Shown piece after piece: positions 1,197-6,645 of a DNA stretch of 40,419 nucleotides. The DNA comes from Pseudolabrys sp. (GTDB lineage Bacteria; Pseudomonadota; Alphaproteobacteria; Rhizobiales; Xanthobacteraceae). The notes under the pieces are model-generated. The model was not told where the DNA came from, did no database searches, and was given only the letters and a program-made list of their open reading frames with translations. How positions within the stretch are numbered: the first letter of the stretch is position 1; each line of letters opens with the position of its first letter. Location: positions 1 through 40,419 of the forward strand of contig JAHBZF010000020.1 of NCBI GenBank assembly GCA_019635575.1. Reading direction: 5' to 3'. Made by a program: the position numbers and the translations under genes.

Positions 1197-1994
1197 TCAG
1201 GCGCGCCGCTGCCGCAAGCGTTGCACGCCGATCACCAGGAAGCTCCAGCCGAGCGACACGCAGAAGCCGAGCAACAGCGCGACCACCGGACCGAACGGCA
1301 CCACCGTCACCGCCAGTGTCCACAGCGCGCCACCAAACCCGACAAAGCCGAGAATGGTGTTGGCGAACACGGTCGCGACCGCCGGGCCGCCAACCCGCGA
1401 ATGCAGGATCACCGCGACGCTGCTCAACACGATCGGAAACACCGCCAACGGGCCGGTCCAGCGCGGACCGATGGTGAAACTGAGACCGACCACCACAGCG
1501 ACAAGCAACGCGACCGAGCCGGCGCGTAACGCCATGTCGTACCAATAGGTGCGCACGCGCGGCATCGGAACGACGGGCAACCGCCGCGCCAGATAGAAGC
1601 AAACCAGAATGGCGACGGCATTGAGCAGGAACACGCTGCCGGGCGTCCACGCCACTGCCTGCAACACGGTGATCAGCCCGAACCAGACCGCAAGCGCGAT
1701 GCCGAGGCTGACGAGCAGCCCGCAGCGGCGCGCGAGCACCGCATAGACCAGCGAGAATACGGCAAGTGCCGCCGTGGTTGCCGCGCTCATCAGTGCGCTG
1801 GTCGCGAGAAACGACGTATCGTGGTCGAGCGCCAGGAACACATAGGTCGGCCCCGTCGAAACCGGCAGCGTCGCCACCATGGCGCCGATCAACGGCCCCA
1901 TCCGCTCGGCGGCGATGGTCGCGCCCAGCACGAAGCCGGCGGTGACCGCCATCTTCAGGATCAGCGCGAGCCAGAACAGTTGATCGGGGGACAT
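1197..1994 (-). CDS. Multi-pass membrane protein of unknown function
   Basis: This is a 265-residue, very hydrophobic protein with about eight or nine predicted membrane segments and short charged loops. It begins with a membrane segment directly after MSPDQ. A conserved-looking stretch in the second segment reads GAMVATLPVSTGPTYVF. I do not recognise a characterised family; small alphaproteobacterial inner-membrane proteins of this form are usually left as hypothetical. Its stop lies 10 bases from the end of the convergent mutS. Upstream, on the same strand, is the OsmC-type gene, separated by 43 bases that contain a 9-bp inverted repeat. Co-transcription with that gene is possible. No function can be inferred from the sequence. 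Confidence 0.75.
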   Translation of the reverse strand: MSPDQLFWLALILKMAVTAGFVLGATIAAERMGPLIGAMVATLPVSTGPTYVFLALDHDTSFLATSALMSAATTAALAVFSLVYAVLARRCGLLVSLGIALAVWFGLITVLQAVAWTPGSVFLLNAVAILVCFYLARRLPVVPMPRVRTYWYDMALRAGSVALLVAVVVGLSFTIGPRWTGPLAVFPIVLSSVAVILHSRVGGPAVATVFANTILGFVGFGGALWTLAVTVVPFGPVVALLLGFCVSLGWSFLVIGVQRLRQRRA

Positions 1995-2594: not shown

Positions 2595-3650
2595 TCATGG
2601 CGTCAACACCACGCGGCCGACAACCTTCCCGGCCTTGAGCGCCATCAGAGCATCATTGGCCTCGTCCAGCGGCCGGGTCTTGACCGGGAACGAGAGCGCC
2701 CCGGCGCGGCCAACGAGATCGAGCAATTCCCGTAACTCCGGGTGGCTGCCCACATAAGAGCCCTGGATGGTCATCGCCCGCATCGGGAAATACGGCGTCG
2801 GGATCGTCAGTTCGCCGCCGAAGAAACCAACCACGACGATCTTGCCGGCTTTCGGGACCAGTGCATCGATCGCGAGCTTCACCGTGTCGCCGGCGCCGAC
2901 GAAATCCACCACCGCCGCTGCGCCACCATTGGTCGCGGCGATGATCTGTTGCGCGGCATCGGGCGCCCTGGCGTCGATGGCCGCGAGCGCGCCGGCGTCG
3001 AGCGCCGCCTGACGCTTGTTCGGATCGATATCGACCACCACCGCGCCCTTGCCGCCCATGGCCTTGACCAGCAATAGACCCATCAGGCCGACGCCGCCCG
3101 CACCCATGATGACGATGGGATTGTCGGCCATCACCGAGGCGACTTTCTTCAGCGCGCCATAAGCTGTGAGGCCAGAGCACGCGAGCGGCGCAGCCTGCTC
3201 CGGCGTCAGCGCACCGATGCCGAACAGATGTCGCGGATGCGGCACCACCAGATAGTCGGCATAGCCGCCATTGGAGAACACGCCGAGATTGCGCGGCGTG
3301 CGGCAGAGATTGTCCTCGCCGCGCTGACAGGCGGCGCAGGTGCCGCATCCGATCCACGGATTGACCAACACCGTATCACCGATCGTAACGCCCTTCGCAT
3401 CCGGGCCAGCGGCGACGATCTCGCCGACATTCTCGTGGCCCAGCGTCAGCGGCAGCTTGATGCCGCGGTCGAGCAGTTGCAGGCGCTTGCCGCCGCCGAG
3501 TTCGTAATAGCCATCCCAGATATGCAGGTCGCTGTGGCAGACGCCGGACGCCTTGACCTTGAGCAGCACCTGCGTGCCGACCGGCTGCGGCGTCGGCTCC
3601 TCCACCAGCGTGAGCGGCGCGCCGCACTGGCAAACCTTGTAACTACGCAT
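2595..3650 (-). CDS. Zinc-dependent alcohol dehydrogenase (MDR family)
   Basis: A 351-residue medium-chain dehydrogenase/reductase, presumably cytoplasmic. The N-terminal domain carries the catalytic zinc ligands in GVCHSDLH and GHENVGEI, and the structural-zinc cysteines in GCGTCAACQRGEDNLC. The Rossmann domain has GAGGVGLMGLLL, with the second strand ending in VVDID; the aspartate points to NAD rather than NADP. Length and domain order are typical of bacterial class alcohol dehydrogenases. The ATG at 3650 is preceded by a GAGG ribosome-binding site. The substrate cannot be told from sequence; primary alcohols or aldehydes are the usual guess. Its gene starts 67 bases from the end of the ABC ATPase gene on the same strand, so it may be downstream in the same transcript, but no functional link is evident. 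Confidence 0.9.
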   Translation of the reverse strand: MRSYKVCQCGAPLTLVEEPTPQPVGTQVLLKVKASGVCHSDLHIWDGYYELGGGKRLQLLDRGIKLPLTLGHENVGEIVAAGPDAKGVTIGDTVLVNPWIGCGTCAACQRGEDNLCRTPRNLGVFSNGGYADYLVVPHPRHLFGIGALTPEQAAPLACSGLTAYGALKKVASVMADNPIVIMGAGGVGLMGLLLVKAMGGKGAVVVDIDPNKRQAALDAGALAAIDARAPDAAQQIIAATNGGAAAVVDFVGAGDTVKLAIDALVPKAGKIVVVGFFGGELTIPTPYFPMRAMTIQGSYVGSHPELRELLDLVGRAGALSFPVKTRPLDEANDALMALKAGKVVGRVVLTP

Positions 3651-3717: not shown

Positions 3718-4524
3718 CTACCACCACATCGCCGCGCCAGGATCGGCCTTGGTCTCGGCATAGTCCTGCGACTTTCGATCGAGCGAGCGGTCGAGCGCCG
3801 CCAGCACCCGCCGCTTGGCGAAGTCGAACGCCGCCGACTGGCGGTCGCGCGGCCGCGGCAGATCGCAGTCGATCGCCTCGAAAATCCGGCCCGGACGCGG
3901 CCGCATCACCAGCACGCGATCGGCAAGCACCACCGCCTCATCGACATCGTGGGTGACGAGCAGCAACGTCGGCCGCGAATCCGCCCACAGGTCGAGCAGA
4001 TGGTCTTGCAGATCGGCGCGGGTGAAAGCATCGAGCGCCGAGAACGGCTCGTCGAGCAGCAGCACTTCCGGGCGCGGCACCAGCGCCCGCGCCAAAGCCA
4101 CGCGCTGCGCCTGCCCGCCGGAAAGTTCGCGCGGCCAGACGCCGGCCTTGTCGGCAAGTCCGACGCGTGCCAGCGCAGCGCGCACGCGCGCTTCACGCTC
4201 CGCGAACGACAGATCCTCGAGCCCGAAGCCGACATTGTCGGCGACGGTGAGCCATGGCAGCAGGCGCGGCTCCTGGAACACGATGCCGATCTTCTCATGC
4301 GGCGCATGGATGGTGACACCGCCGAGCGTCACGTCGCCGCTCGACGCCACATCGAGGCCAGACACCGCGCGCAGCAAGGTCGACTTGCCGCAGCCGGAGC
4401 CGCCGACGATGGCGAGAATCTCGCCGGGCTTCACGGTGATGCTGACCTGGTCGAGCGCGCGCACGCCGTTCGGATAGACCTTGGAGACGTGGTCGAGCAC
4501 CAGCATGTCGCGCTGCTCGCTCAT
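3718..4524 (-). CDS. ABC importer ATP-binding protein, nitrate/sulfonate/taurine type (SsuB-like)
   Basis: A 268-residue cytoplasmic ATPase that would power uptake by the permease encoded just upstream. Motifs in order: Walker A GGSGCGKST (residues 41-49), Q-loop IVFQEPRLLPW, signature LSGGQ (134-138), Walker B LLLDEP (155-160) and switch histidine in LLVTHDVDEA. The FQEPRLLPW Q-loop and HDVDEAVVLADRV are characteristic of the SsuB/TauB/NrtD branch. The start codon overlaps the permease stop (ATGA, 4521-4524). The open frame runs further upstream inside the permease gene, but that extension is a shadow of the permease in another frame. The SAM-II riboswitch at the operon head supports an organosulfur substrate, though sequence alone does not fix it. 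Confidence 0.92.
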   Translation of the reverse strand: MSEQRDMLVLDHVSKVYPNGVRALDQVSITVKPGEILAIVGGSGCGKSTLLRAVSGLDVASSGDVTLGGVTIHAPHEKIGIVFQEPRLLPWLTVADNVGFGLEDLSFAEREARVRAALARVGLADKAGVWPRELSGGQAQRVALARALVPRPEVLLLDEPFSALDAFTRADLQDHLLDLWADSRPTLLLVTHDVDEAVVLADRVLVMRPRPGRIFEAIDCDLPRPRDRQSAAFDFAKRRVLAALDRSLDRKSQDYAETKADPGAAMWW

Positions 4525-5378
4525 GCGGTTTCTCCGCGCGCGCCGAACCGGTCTTCCCAGCGCAGGAATGGTGTCGCGGCGGCGACGATCAGACCATCGG
4601 CGATCTTGCCGAGAATGGCGAAGGTGATGATGGCGGCAACGATCTGCGCCGGTTTGCCGAGCTGCTGGCCGTCGATCAGCAGATAGCCGAGACCTTCCGA
4701 CGCGCCGAGGAATTCCGCGGCGACCACGAACATCCAGCCGAGGCCGAGACCGGAGCGCAGCGCGACGATGTAGGACGGCAGCACCGCCGGCAACAGGATG
4801 CGCCGCACCAGCGCGAAGCCCGACAGCCGGAACGCGCGGCCAACCTCGACGATCTTGCGATCCACCGACATGATCGCACCCATCACGCCGAGATAGACCG
4901 GAAAGAACACGCCGACCGCGATCAGCGTCACTTTCGATGCCTCGAAAATGCCGAGCCAGAGAATGAACAGCGGCACCCAGGCGATCGACGGGATCGCGCG
5001 CAGCGCCTGCAGCGTCGGATCGAGCAATCGCCGCGTCAGCGCGGAATAGCCGGCAAGCGCGCCGAGCAGCGTCCCGGCGACAACGCCGATCCCGAAACCA
5101 ACCGCGACACGGAGCACGGTGGCCACGCTGTGGCGCCACAACTCGCCGCTCTGCGCGAGGTCGTACAATGTCTGGAGAATGACCGACGGCGGCGGCATCA
5201 GCCGGCCGTTGGAGAAACCGGCGCGCACCGCCAGCTCCCAACCGACCGCCAGCACCAGCGGCACCAGCAGACCGAGCAGCGGCCGCGACCAGCGGCCGAA
5301 ACGCCGCGGGCGCGCGACCTGCGGCCGCGCGGTCGTCTCGCTGTCGGAAGCCACCCCGGTCATCAGCGCAAATGACAT
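4521..5378 (-). CDS. ABC importer permease, sulfonate type (SsuC-like)
   Basis: A 285-residue inner-membrane permease of the binding-protein-dependent family. It has a first membrane helix LLGLLVPLVLAVGWELAVRAG, four to five more helices, and an EAA-like coupling loop around EVGRAFRLSGFALVRRILLPAVLPSYIVALRSGLG that docks on the ATPase. GWMFVVAAEFLGASEGLGYLL matches SsuC/TauC proteins, which often read ...AEMIGA..GLGFLI in this position. The N-terminal cytoplasmic tail is longer than usual; an alternative ATG lies at 5363, and neither start has a clear ribosome-binding site. The gene overlaps the ATPase gene by four bases and follows the binding-protein gene by 90 bases, which contain a strong hairpin. 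Confidence 0.9.
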   Translation of the reverse strand: MSFALMTGVASDSETTARPQVARPRRFGRWSRPLLGLLVPLVLAVGWELAVRAGFSNGRLMPPPSVILQTLYDLAQSGELWRHSVATVLRVAVGFGIGVVAGTLLGALAGYSALTRRLLDPTLQALRAIPSIAWVPLFILWLGIFEASKVTLIAVGVFFPVYLGVMGAIMSVDRKIVEVGRAFRLSGFALVRRILLPAVLPSYIVALRSGLGLGWMFVVAAEFLGASEGLGYLLIDGQQLGKPAQIVAAIITFAILGKIADGLIVAAATPFLRWEDRFGARGETA

Positions 5379-5468: not shown

Positions 5469-6446
5469 TCAGTTGGTGACAGCAACGAAGCTGTCGTCGA
5501 CCAGATCGTCGAGCGCCTTCTTGACGTCCACCGAGGCCGGGATCACGCCGGCCTTCTGCAGCGCGATGCCGGCCTGCAGGATCGAGTCGCGTTGCTCGGC
5601 ACCGATCTTGTTGAAGGTCAGCTTGGTGCGTTCCTTGAGCTGCTTGTCGACCACCGCGTCCGGCAGCTTGGTGACGGCGATGAACACCTTCTTCTCTTCG
5701 TCGTAATTCGCCAGCGTGAATTTGCGCGCCTGCTCATAGACCGCGAGCACACGGCGGACGATCTCCGGATGGTTCTTGGCGAACTCCTCACGAACATTGA
5801 GGATGCCCCAGGTGTTGGCCGCGGCATTGCGATAGAACAGCCGCGCGCCGTCCTCGACTTCCGCCGCCGCCATCATCGGATCGAGACCGGCCCAGGCGTC
5901 CACGTCGCCGCGAATGAGCGCGGTCTTGCCGTCCGGATGCTGCAGCAGCACTGGCGTGATGTCCTTCTCGGTCAGCCCGGCATCGGCGAGCGCGCGCACC
6001 AGGAAGATGTGCGGATCGGTGCCGCGCGTGACCGCGACCGACTTGCCCTTGAGGTCGGAGACCTTGTTGATGTTCGACTTCGCGCCGGTGACGAGCGCGG
6101 TCCATTCGGGACGCGAATAGACATAGATCGACTTGATCGGGTTGCCGTTGATGCGCGCGACCAGCGCGGCCGAGCCGGCGGTCGAGCCGAAATCGATCGA
6201 ACCGGCGTTGAGGAATTCCAGCGCCTTGTTGGAGCCGAGCGTCTGCACCCAGCGCACGGTGATGCCGTCCTTGGCGAATTCCTTTTCCAGCAGGCCCTGC
6301 TGCTTGAGCACCATCGACACCGGATTGTAGGTCGCCCAGTCGATGCTGATGGTCTTCACCGGATCGGCGGCGAACAGCGGCGCCGACGGCAGCAGGCCGG
6401 CGAGCAGAACCGAGGCGAAGATGGAGCGACGGGAAAACACGGTCAT
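5469..6446 (-). CDS. ABC importer substrate-binding protein, aliphatic-sulfonate type (SsuA-like)
   Basis: A 325-residue periplasmic binding protein. The signal peptide RRSIFASVLLAGLLPSAPLF ends near AAD. The mature protein begins TISIDWATYNPVSMVLKQQG and continues with LEFLNAGSIDFGSTAGSAALVARING, the layout of SsuA/TauA/NrtA proteins, in which the GSTAG region contributes to the ligand site. The ATG at 6446 is chosen because GGAGG lies 7 bases upstream and a signal peptide follows at once. A longer frame to 6599 would run through the riboswitch leader and has no signal peptide. First gene of the operon with the permease and ATPase. The riboswitch upstream suggests repression when S-adenosylmethionine is plentiful. 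Taurine or another organosulfur or nitrogen compound cannot be excluded as ligand. Confidence 0.9.
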   Translation of the reverse strand: MTVFSRRSIFASVLLAGLLPSAPLFAADPVKTISIDWATYNPVSMVLKQQGLLEKEFAKDGITVRWVQTLGSNKALEFLNAGSIDFGSTAGSAALVARINGNPIKSIYVYSRPEWTALVTGAKSNINKVSDLKGKSVAVTRGTDPHIFLVRALADAGLTEKDITPVLLQHPDGKTALIRGDVDAWAGLDPMMAAAEVEDGARLFYRNAAANTWGILNVREEFAKNHPEIVRRVLAVYEQARKFTLANYDEEKKVFIAVTKLPDAVVDKQLKERTKLTFNKIGAEQRDSILQAGIALQKAGVIPASVDVKKALDDLVDDSFVAVTN

Positions 6447-6510
6447 GAAAGACCTCCATGCGTTGCGCTCACGCCACCAGTCCCGACCGGCGGCGCAGCA
6501 AGAGGATGGA

Positions 6511-6549
6511 GGCGGGAAAACGATCCCGCCCTCAGCTCGGCGAGGGCGG
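6511..6549 (-). promoter_or_regulatory. Two overlapping, mutually exclusive hairpins in the ABC-operon leader (putative expression platform)
   Basis: On the minus strand, just after the riboswitch, CCGCCCTC pairs with GAGGGCGG (6526-6549, 8 bp, 8-base loop) and is followed by GATCGTTTT, resembling a weak terminator. Five bases of its 3' arm also belong to a second hairpin, GGCGGG / CCCGCC (6511-6530, 6 bp). The two cannot form together. Alternative pairing of this kind is what a transcriptional expression platform needs. That it is coupled to the aptamer is inference. Confidence 0.5.
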
Positions 6550-6551
6550 AT

Positions 6552-6610
6552 GCCCCGCTTTAGCTGCATTTGTTGAGCGCCCGCAAGCTGATTGCTCAAA
6601 TCGGCGCTAT
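6552..6610 (-). ncRNA. SAM-II riboswitch aptamer
   Basis: SAM-II riboswitches bind S-adenosylmethionine and switch off sulfur and methionine genes, mostly in Alphaproteobacteria. Read on the minus strand, AGCGCC and GGCGCT form stem P1. The loop contains GATTTGA and AGCTTGC, and the 3' tail reads AAATGCAGCTAAAGCGGGG. AGCTTGC can pair with GCAGCT with one bulged T, which is the expected H-type pseudoknot. Order, spacing and the GATTT, TTGC and AAATG.AGCTAAA blocks match the metX SAM-II aptamer as I remember it. It begins about five bases after a good sigma-70 -10 box and precedes an SsuA-like ABC gene by about 105 bases, rather than the better-known metA/metX/metZ. Confidence 0.85.
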
Positions 6611-6614
6611 GATT

Positions 6615-6645
6615 ATTCTATAAAAGCGCAGAATTTTTCCGTCAA
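6615..6645 (-). promoter_or_regulatory. Sigma-70-type promoter of the riboswitch/ABC operon
   Basis: On the minus strand TTGACG (6640-6645) is followed after 17 bases by TATAGA (6617-6622), or after 19 bases by TAGAAT (6615-6620). The surroundings are AT-rich in an otherwise very GC-rich window. Transcription would begin at or just before the 5' end of the aptamer, supporting both calls. Confidence 0.65.

What the first reader, a model, noticed from the sequence alone, without database searches (positions are those of the whole stretch)
6511..6645. SAM-II riboswitch with alternative hairpins controlling a sulfonate-type ABC importer
Promoter, aptamer and two mutually exclusive hairpins follow each other in one ~135-base leader, with the aptamer pseudoknot (AGCTTGC with GCAGCT) and conserved blocks intact. 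SAM-II is best known before methionine biosynthesis genes; here it would shut off import of an organosulfur compound when S-adenosylmethionine is abundant. The ~105 bases between aptamer and start codon and the overlapping stems suggest a separate expression platform, rather than the direct occlusion of the ribosome-binding site usually proposed for SAM-II.
Basis: partly seen in the sequence, partly recalled or inferred. Interest (0 to 1): 0.72.

Follow-up and report, generated by a model that had tools for sequence, protein, structure and literature searches.

The report
SAM-II-type switch guarding sulfonate importer
An RNA switch of a known family that senses S-adenosylmethionine, in a short form that the standard model often misses, sits in front of a sulfur-compound importer operon, and the same pairing recurs in dozens of related genomes.

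Summary
Window 6556-6608 (minus strand) carries a SAM-II-type pseudoknot aptamer before ssuA-ssuC-ssuB. The cause is a short P2a: canonical copies have a longer, GGCC-type helix. A model of 35 non-ssu relatives gives 72.2 bits; those relatives were collected with a pattern taken partly from the window, but shuffles that keep the pattern bases score far lower.

In 296 family genomes, 45 of 52 strong hits lie before an orthologue of this SsuA. The leaders share a TTGAC box, hairpins H1 and H2 competing for one arm, and an anti-Shine-Dalgarno stretch. Terminators follow 79 of 111 non-ssu relatives but 8 of 44 ssu leaders. I infer that H1 is the old terminator hairpin, rewired to translation control.

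It is a new variant and target of a known riboswitch kind. It probably also explains the 'metXZ' element of Leyn et al. 2014 and suggests that Rfam RF02424 models the opposite strand. SAM binding and cargo are untested.

The parts
6617..6645 (-). promoter-like TTGACG - 17 nt - TATAGA just upstream of the aptamer
   Evidence: Read; TTGAC at 32-36 nt before P1 in 42 of 44 ssu leaders; not found by the 9-of-12 consensus scan
6556..6608 (-). SAM-II-type pseudoknot aptamer, short-P2a form: P1 6603-6608/6576-6581, P2 strands 6582-6590 and 6556-6566, core UU and UAAA
   Evidence: RF00521 32.8 bits, below GA 36; R2 72.2 bits, E 1.9e-19 (pattern caveat and control); covariation of the outer P2a pair in relatives
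6533..6537 (-). AGCTG, candidate anti-aptamer strand in the loop of H1
   Evidence: AGCTG or GGCTG within 60 nt after the aptamer in 36 of 41 leaders; duplex with the P2 5' strand only weakly above shuffles, mean z -1.1 over 41
6525..6550 (-). H1 hairpin, terminator-like in the window (tail ATCGTTTT)
   Evidence: the scan found 1, shuffles 0.6 on average
6511..6530 (-). H2 hairpin GGCGGG...CCCGCC, shares its 5' arm with H1
   Evidence: H1 and H2 both foldable through the shared arm in 33 of 41 leaders
6506..6512 (-). anti-Shine-Dalgarno CCTCCAT, overlaps the end of H2 by two bases
   Evidence: pairs with 6453-6459; helix kept in 89.3% of cells over 41 leaders; mean z -2.5 over the 39 leaders with the motif
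6453..6459 (-). Shine-Dalgarno region ATGGAGG of ssuA
5469..6446 (-). ssuA-type substrate-binding protein (325 aa)
   Evidence: TIGR01728 244.4 bits, cut-off 163.5; PDB match 2x26 E 1.3e-29
4521..5378 (-). ssuC-type permease
   Evidence: PF00528; best NCBIfam match SsuC PRK11365 187 bits, below its cut-off 347
3718..4524 (-). ssuB-type ATPase
   Evidence: PF00005; best NCBIfam match SsuB PRK11247 232.6 bits, below its cut-off 395
2595..3650 (-). zinc alcohol dehydrogenase-like gene, probably same operon (inferred from spacing and order)
   Evidence: PF08240/PF00107; same order in L077 and L240
2038..2553 (-). OsmC-like gene, probably same operon (inferred from spacing and order)
   Evidence: PF02566; downstream of the ssu genes also in L077, L071, L108

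Best explanation
A SAM-II-kind riboswitch (short-P2a form) that lowers expression of the ssuACB-type importer operon when S-adenosylmethionine is plentiful. Transcription starts at about the first base of P1. SAM closes the H-type pseudoknot; the anti-aptamer strand in the H1 region then cannot invade P2, H1 forms and takes the arm needed by H2, the stretch CCCGCCUCCAU is freed, and CCUCCAU pairs with the AUGGAGG ribosome-binding site (OFF). Without SAM the anti-aptamer strand invades P2, H1 is lost, H2 forms and ties up the start of the anti-SD (ON). Shown by sequence and comparison: aptamer, operon, conservation, H1/H2 exclusivity, anti-SD complementarity. Inferred: SAM as ligand, direction of control, start of transcription, the order of folding, and a contribution of termination at H1 in the minority of leaders (window included) that keep a U-rich tail.
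For: R2 hit 72.2 bits from a training set without window or ssu-linked copies, not explained by the pattern bases alone. Same genome has two canonical SAM-II copies, 81.1 and 77.4 bits, before metX and metZ. 45 of 52 strong family hits precede the SsuA orthologue (44; G518 by coordinates); same in three Microvirga records and one Bosea record. 10 of 17 ssu leaders pass the RF00521 cut-off. H1 and H2 share an arm in 33 of 41 leaders. Anti-SD/SD helix paired in 89.3% of cells, two of seven pairs with changes on both sides; in L222 the spacer is lost and anti-SD and SD form one tight hairpin. The window's downstream part alone folds as H1 plus the SD stem. No T-run above 3 in the 8 nt after H2. 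Another genome of the family carries the element before dimethylsulfone monooxygenase SfnG.
Against: Window copy is below the Rfam gathering score. Equilibrium folding leaves the window SD mostly paired with a free or a blocked aptamer (0.12 and 0.19 unpaired), so the switch, if real, depends on folding order. Anti-aptamer pairing is weakly supported (mean z -1.1, 5 of 41 below -2). The outer P2a pair is standard in only 22 of 39 ssu leaders with the exact core. Covariation over the named structure is modest: 95.1% of cells paired against 94.0% in shuffles, 3 pairs with changes on both sides against 1.1 (16 of 500 shuffles reach it). H2 overlaps the anti-SD by only two bases. 107 of 152 family genomes with the SsuA orthologue have no strong aptamer hit before it.
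Confidence: 0.7

Rival explanations
1. Transcription attenuation: H1 is an intrinsic terminator that forms when SAM is bound, as proposed for the metX/metZ relatives; H2 and the anti-SD are secondary.
For: H1 with tail ATCGTTTT is flagged terminator-like in the window. My own scan finds a terminator-like hairpin in 8 of 44 ssu leaders, 6 of them at H1, 0.6 expected from shuffles; non-ssu relatives have one in 79 of 111, 12.6 expected.
Against: 31 of 39 leaders with a recognisable arm have fewer than 5 T in 8 after H1; the anti-SD is kept more widely than the U-tract. The scan expects 0.6 such sites by chance in this stretch.
Confidence: 0.2
2. A degenerate SAM-II copy that no longer works.
For: Sub-threshold Rfam score; many orthologous operons lack the element.
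Against: Core blocks intact; 72.2 bits with R2; leader features conserved in the 41 aligned leaders.
Confidence: 0.05
3. A SAM-II-like aptamer with altered ligand (SAH or another sulfur metabolite).
For: Not excluded by sequence alone; P2a differs from canonical copies.
Against: Bases that I map to the SAM contacts of SAM-V (U9, U20, U47, A48, A50; PMC6061858 passages) are present; relatives precede metZ and metK (NCBIfam above cut-off) and metA-like genes.
Confidence: 0.05

Closest known systems
SAM-II riboswitch (Rfam RF00521 SAM_alpha)
   Same: H-type pseudoknot, GAUUUG loop, UU and UAAA core, cis position before sulfur-metabolism genes; 10 of 17 ssu orthologues scanned pass the Rfam cut-off
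   Different: Short P2a instead of the GGCC-type helix of the 25 canonical rows checked; 75-nt match in the window, mostly 78-81 in canonical hits; importer as target; platform with H1, H2 and anti-SD
metXZ RNA element of betaproteobacteria (Leyn et al. 2014, PMC4239095, passages read)
   Same: Pseudoknot plus an alternative stem, followed by a terminator with poly-U, before metX or metZ in betaproteobacteria; they name Nitrosospira and Methylophilales before metZ, as in my L048 (metZ by NCBIfam), L107 and L040 (by eye)
   Different: Described there as a new element beside SAM_alpha, no ligand given in the passages seen; here read as the short SAM-II form. Their alignment is in a supplement that I could not open
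SAM-V riboswitch
   Same: Same ligand core and short P2a (PMC6061858 passages)
   Different: SAM-V has a P3 helix, and its P2a holds the probable SD in most cases; here the SD is about 100 nt downstream
Rfam RF02424 Bp2_287 (Burkholderia sRNA)
   Same: Covers this element in the Paraburkholderia record L073, 141.3 bits
   Different: Modelled on the opposite strand
Tandem SAM riboswitches before ssuABC homologues in Bacillota (PMC12452182, passages)
   Same: SAM control of an ssu-type transporter
   Different: Listed there under the class name 'SAM' (I take this as SAM-I), in operons that the authors read as hydroxymethylpyrimidine uptake

Membership tests
SAM-II (RF00521) | Covariance score at or above Rfam gathering score 36 | tested here: not met
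   32.8 bits for the window copy; met in 10 of 17 ssu-linked orthologues scanned. I therefore file it as a short variant of the SAM-II kind, not as a plain RF00521 member
SAM-II (RF00521) | P1 plus P2 H-type pseudoknot | tested here: met
   P1 and P2 strands in place; in 117 distinct elements the outer P2a pair is standard in 94, shuffle mean 53.4, 0 of 2000; weaker in ssu leaders, 22 of 39
SAM-II (RF00521) | Conserved ligand-contact bases (GAUUUG loop, UU, UAAA) | tested here: met
   Present in the window; contacts taken from the SAM-V structure paper (PMC6061858, passages), mapping mine
SAM-II (RF00521) | Binds SAM and discriminates SAH | not testable with these tools
   Needs in-line probing or calorimetry
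SAM-V | P3 helix and SD inside P2a | tested here: not met
   SD at 6453-6459, about 100 nt from the aptamer; P3 was not looked for separately, none is seen in the linker
metXZ element | Same six conserved regions | tested here: inconclusive
   Topology, hosts and targets agree; the published alignment could not be opened
SsuA family importer (TIGR01728) | Score above curated cut-off | tested here: met
   244.4 bits against 163.5
Alkanesulfonate system SsuEADCB | SsuD monooxygenase encoded in the genome | tested here: not met
   No SsuD over cut-off in the held genome, best 39 bits against 518; genome 83.6% complete, so absence is not shown; SfnG likewise 68.4 against 383

The most novel reading that the evidence does not exclude
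A widespread short-P2a branch of SAM-II, often missed by the current Rfam model (15 of 38 short-form loci scanned pass RF00521, one record counted twice), explains the orphan metXZ element. It controls not only methionine synthesis but organosulfur scavenging (ssuACB importer, dimethylsulfone monooxygenase SfnG), sulfate assimilation (cysH, cysG) and metK. In one alphaproteobacterial family its terminator hairpin has been converted into the toggle of an anti-SD translational switch.
Probability: 0.6. Interest if true: 0.62.

Novelty: new variant of a known kind. Interest (0 to 1): 0.5.

Why it matters
It would give SAM-II a transport target outside methionine biosynthesis, link sulfur scavenging in these bacteria to the SAM pool, offer a ligand for an RNA element described in 2014, and provide a natural series (terminator relatives, mixed leaders, anti-SD leaders) in which the change from transcriptional to translational control can be studied with one aptamer.

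Tried and rejected
Direct occlusion of the SD by P2a, as in SAM-V and metX SAM-II: rejected, the SD is about 100 nt away. H2 as terminator: rejected, no T-run above 3 in the 8 nt after H2 in the 38 of 41 leaders where a tail was read (for L203 the script read the wrong place). Anti-aptamer pairing with the 3' P2 strand (CAGCU/AGCUG): downgraded, since in L206, L215, L217 and L222 the aptamer side changed without a matching change; pairing with the 5' strand preferred but weak. RNAalifold on the gapped 41-leader alignment found 11 pairs, all inside the aptamer and nothing downstream. Other weak Rfam hits (cold-seep-1, CC1840 and so on): far below cut-off, ignored. RF02424 in the order: two weak hits in one genome, by eye at a tRNA and in coding sequence, unrelated. 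SAM-dependent SD accessibility by equilibrium folding gave no clear difference for the window; among the ten leaders only L152 and L080 shifted visibly (0.40 to 0.10 and 0.48 to 0.13).

Limits of my sets. Model R1 was built with brackets one column out of register, so its four pairs are not P1; it served as a sequence profile, and the window is in its training set, so its 76.5 bits are not independent. R2 corrects both points, but its members came from the pattern, whose fixed bases I chose from the window, L035, L036 and the RF02424 consensus; one search is the control for that. A4 rows are mainly beta/gamma by record label; some labels are less exact. From 44 ssu leaders, 3 (L224, L225, L226) were left out of alignment A3 (mis-called start or insertion); two rows without the exact core were left out of the 39. 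Searches over more than 40 genomes use stricter filters that lose weak matches. Shuffles are mononucleotide or column shuffles and ignore relatedness.

Full report
OBSERVATION. On the minus strand, 6645 to 6444 reads: TTGACG, 17 nt, TATAGA, a pseudoknot aptamer (6608-6556), hairpin H1 (6550-6525), hairpin H2 (6530-6511), ATGGAGG (6459-6453) and the ATG of ssuA at 6446. With Rfam 15 nothing in the 40,419-base window reaches a gathering score. With lax settings on 601 bases RF00521 SAM_alpha gives 32.8 bits, E 1.3e-5, against a cut-off of 36.

WHY IT SCORES LOW. The own genome holds two canonical SAM-II copies (81.1 and 77.4 bits), before metX (559 bits with PRK00175, cut-off 331; TIGR01392 483.5, just below its 500) and metZ (706 bits with PRK07504, cut-off 675). 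In an order sample, 90 of 121 genomes have an RF00521 match. Of 31 loci looked at by regular expression, 25 were recognised as canonical; all 25 have a GTGG/CCAC P1 and GGCC, GGTC or GACC on the 3' side of P2a. The window copy lacks that P2a. Of 18 such loci, 5 pass RF00521, 1 matches RF02424 on the other strand, and 12 match no Rfam family at the gathering score.

SCORE FROM RELATIVES. R2, built with P1 in register from 35 short-form elements, none from the window or an ssu locus, finds the window at 72.2 bits, E 1.9e-19, its only window hit. Over 15 sources it makes 14 matches in 13: the window, all eight ssu-type loci given (L108 twice), L241, L236, L035 and L036; the two canonical loci L001 and L002 give none at E 0.01. 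Because the 35 were collected with a pattern taken partly from the window, I scored the window element against 200 shuffles that keep the pattern bases: 59.6 bits against a mean of 16.5 and a maximum of 31.5 with a sequence profile of the same rows.

PSEUDOKNOT. Among 117 distinct short-form elements (122 before duplicates were dropped; window, L035 and L036 included), the base before CAGCUUGCG and the base after GCUAAAGCG form a standard pair in 94 (75 Watson-Crick), against 53.4 in shuffles, 0 of 2000. Other registers give 41 to 65; one of them (65, mean 52.5) also exceeds most shuffles (8 of 2000 reach it). In the ssu leaders the same pair is standard in only 22 of 39, so it is not kept strictly there.

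TARGET. ssuA-type protein: TIGR01728 244.4 bits, cut-off 163.5. Permease and ATPase resemble SsuC and SsuB but stay below the equivalog cut-offs. A zinc dehydrogenase and an OsmC-like gene follow closely. The same five genes in order are in the Rhodoplanes MAG L077 (identities 79, 72, 76, 65 and 83%); L152, Microvirga L071 and L080 and Bosea L108 have three or four of them; Microvirga L064 is cut after the start of ssuA. With R1 as a sequence profile, 71 of 296 family genomes match at E 0.01 or better. I count 52 hits of 49 bits or more in 49 genomes; the next score is 33.6. Forty-four, the window included, were seen upstream of the SsuA orthologue, and G518 by coordinates (aptamer 233-301, SsuA 409-1377): 45 of 52. 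The other seven are G322:C70, G347:C50, G324:C90 (two), G528, G551 and G559. The SsuA orthologue itself occurs in 152 of the 296 genomes (E 1e-110 or better), so most copies lack the switch. In an order-wide sample R1 hits only 5 of 297 genomes at 1e-5, and none of 29 other orthologue loci from the order showed the aptamer by regular expression. L199 and L203 have the same contig coordinates as L077 and L152, so they are most likely the same records.

PLATFORM. In 41 aligned leaders, H1 and H2 are both foldable and share an arm in 33. The first bases after H2 pair with the SD region: mean z -2.5 over 39 leaders with the motif, 29 below -2, SD region shuffled. In the alignment 89.3% of cells of this helix pair and two of its seven pairs have changes on both sides. 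For the whole named structure (P1, P2 and anti-SD) 95.1% of cells pair, against 36-52% when slid but 94.0% when 3' letters are shuffled among rows (1 of 500 reach it); the covariation score is 0.071 against 0.056 (2 of 500). Much of the support is thus conservation, with some covariation. L222 has lost the spacer and keeps CCTCCAACTTGGAGG as one hairpin. The window's downstream part alone folds as H1 plus the SD stem, z -2.7. Against: equilibrium folding of the full window leader leaves the SD paired in both states, and the anti-aptamer duplex is weak (mean z -1.1), although AGCTG or GGCTG is kept in 36 of 41 leaders.

FROM TERMINATOR TO ANTI-SD. Among 111 short-form elements outside ssu loci, 79 are followed by a terminator-like hairpin with U-tract (12.6 expected from shuffles); among 44 ssu leaders 8 are, 6 of them at H1 and the window among those (0.6 expected). 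Of 31 non-ssu leaders printed, 28 have a run of four or more T; in 9 of 31 I count an exact motif complementary to the P2 strands (AAGCTG, TTTAGC or TTTGGC) before the terminator tail. H1 in ssu leaders lies at the same place with AGCUG in its loop. I infer that H1 derives from that terminator; no tree was built to test this.

OTHER TARGETS. Of 120 elements, 58 fall in one single-linkage cluster that mixes metX-like and metZ-like proteins, 12 in a metH/homocysteine-methyltransferase-like cluster, 12 in an ABC-ATPase cluster, 6 in the SsuA cluster and 3 in an aspartokinase-like cluster (names by eye). NCBIfam gives metZ (L048), metK (L140, L153), cysH (L043) and cysG (L068) above cut-off, and MetA (L120, 460.8 against 495) and MetN (L144, 303 against 500) as best but below cut-off. 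In G322, which also has the ssu leader, a second short-form element followed by a T7 tail lies 63 nt before SfnG, dimethylsulfone monooxygenase, 620.9 bits, cut-off 382.95.

LITERATURE. Leyn 2014 (PMC4239095, passages) found SAM_alpha only in Rhizobiales and Rhodobacterales and described metXZ in betaproteobacteria as a new element with two conformations and a terminator. [quoted passage not shown] the equation with metXZ is what I did not find stated. Huang and Lilley 2018 (PMC6061858) and PMC12452182 were also seen in passages only. Searches in the held library; metXZ with riboswitch gave Leyn only, 'SAM-II riboswitch' with sulfonate one paper on Pelagibacter (listing only), SAM-II with ssuA PMC12452182 only, sfnG with riboswitch one review (listing only), 'SAM riboswitch' with alkanesulfonate none. 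The library lacks most subscription papers, so absence from print is not shown.

VERDICT. The finding is real and the reading is right in its main lines. It is a new variant and a new target of a known riboswitch kind. The ligand, direction of control and cargo of the importer remain to be tested.

Noticed in passing
L073 638-815: Rfam RF02424 Bp2_287 (named a Burkholderia sRNA) lies on the strand opposite the short-form SAM-II element before a metZ-like gene; the similar Paraburkholderia loci L079, L085, L091 and L109 were not scanned. The family is probably modelled on the wrong strand, though an antisense transcript is not excluded.
   Followed up: partly
L241 8843-10068: Short-form SAM-II element with a terminator-like tail 63 nt before dimethylsulfone monooxygenase SfnG, in a genome that also has the ssu leader.
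   Followed up: partly
L235, L236, L237: Three genomes of one genus of the family carry the aptamer closely before a YfcE-like phosphodiesterase ORF (L236 tested, below NCBIfam cut-off); reason unknown.
   Followed up: partly
L140, L153: Short-form SAM-II element before metK in two records labelled Gammaproteobacteria.
   Followed up: partly
L108 1336-1403 and 4121-4189: Bosea sp. WAO has two aptamers in one gene cluster, one before ssuA and one before a further ABC ATPase gene next to osmC.
   Followed up: no
L035, L036, L041, L044, L045, L053, L068, L072, L096, L110, L112, L124, L131, L150: A second short sub-form with a CGCGG-like P1, in most of those printed followed at once by a CCACG...CGTGG-like hairpin, before cysG (L068, NCBIfam) and, by eye, cysH, ABC and homocysteine methyltransferase-like genes; 39.2 and 35.1 bits with R2 for L035 and L036.
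   Followed up: no
window 1197-1994: 265-aa ORF, hydrophobic by eye, with no Pfam or NCBIfam match, next to the osmC gene.
   Followed up: no
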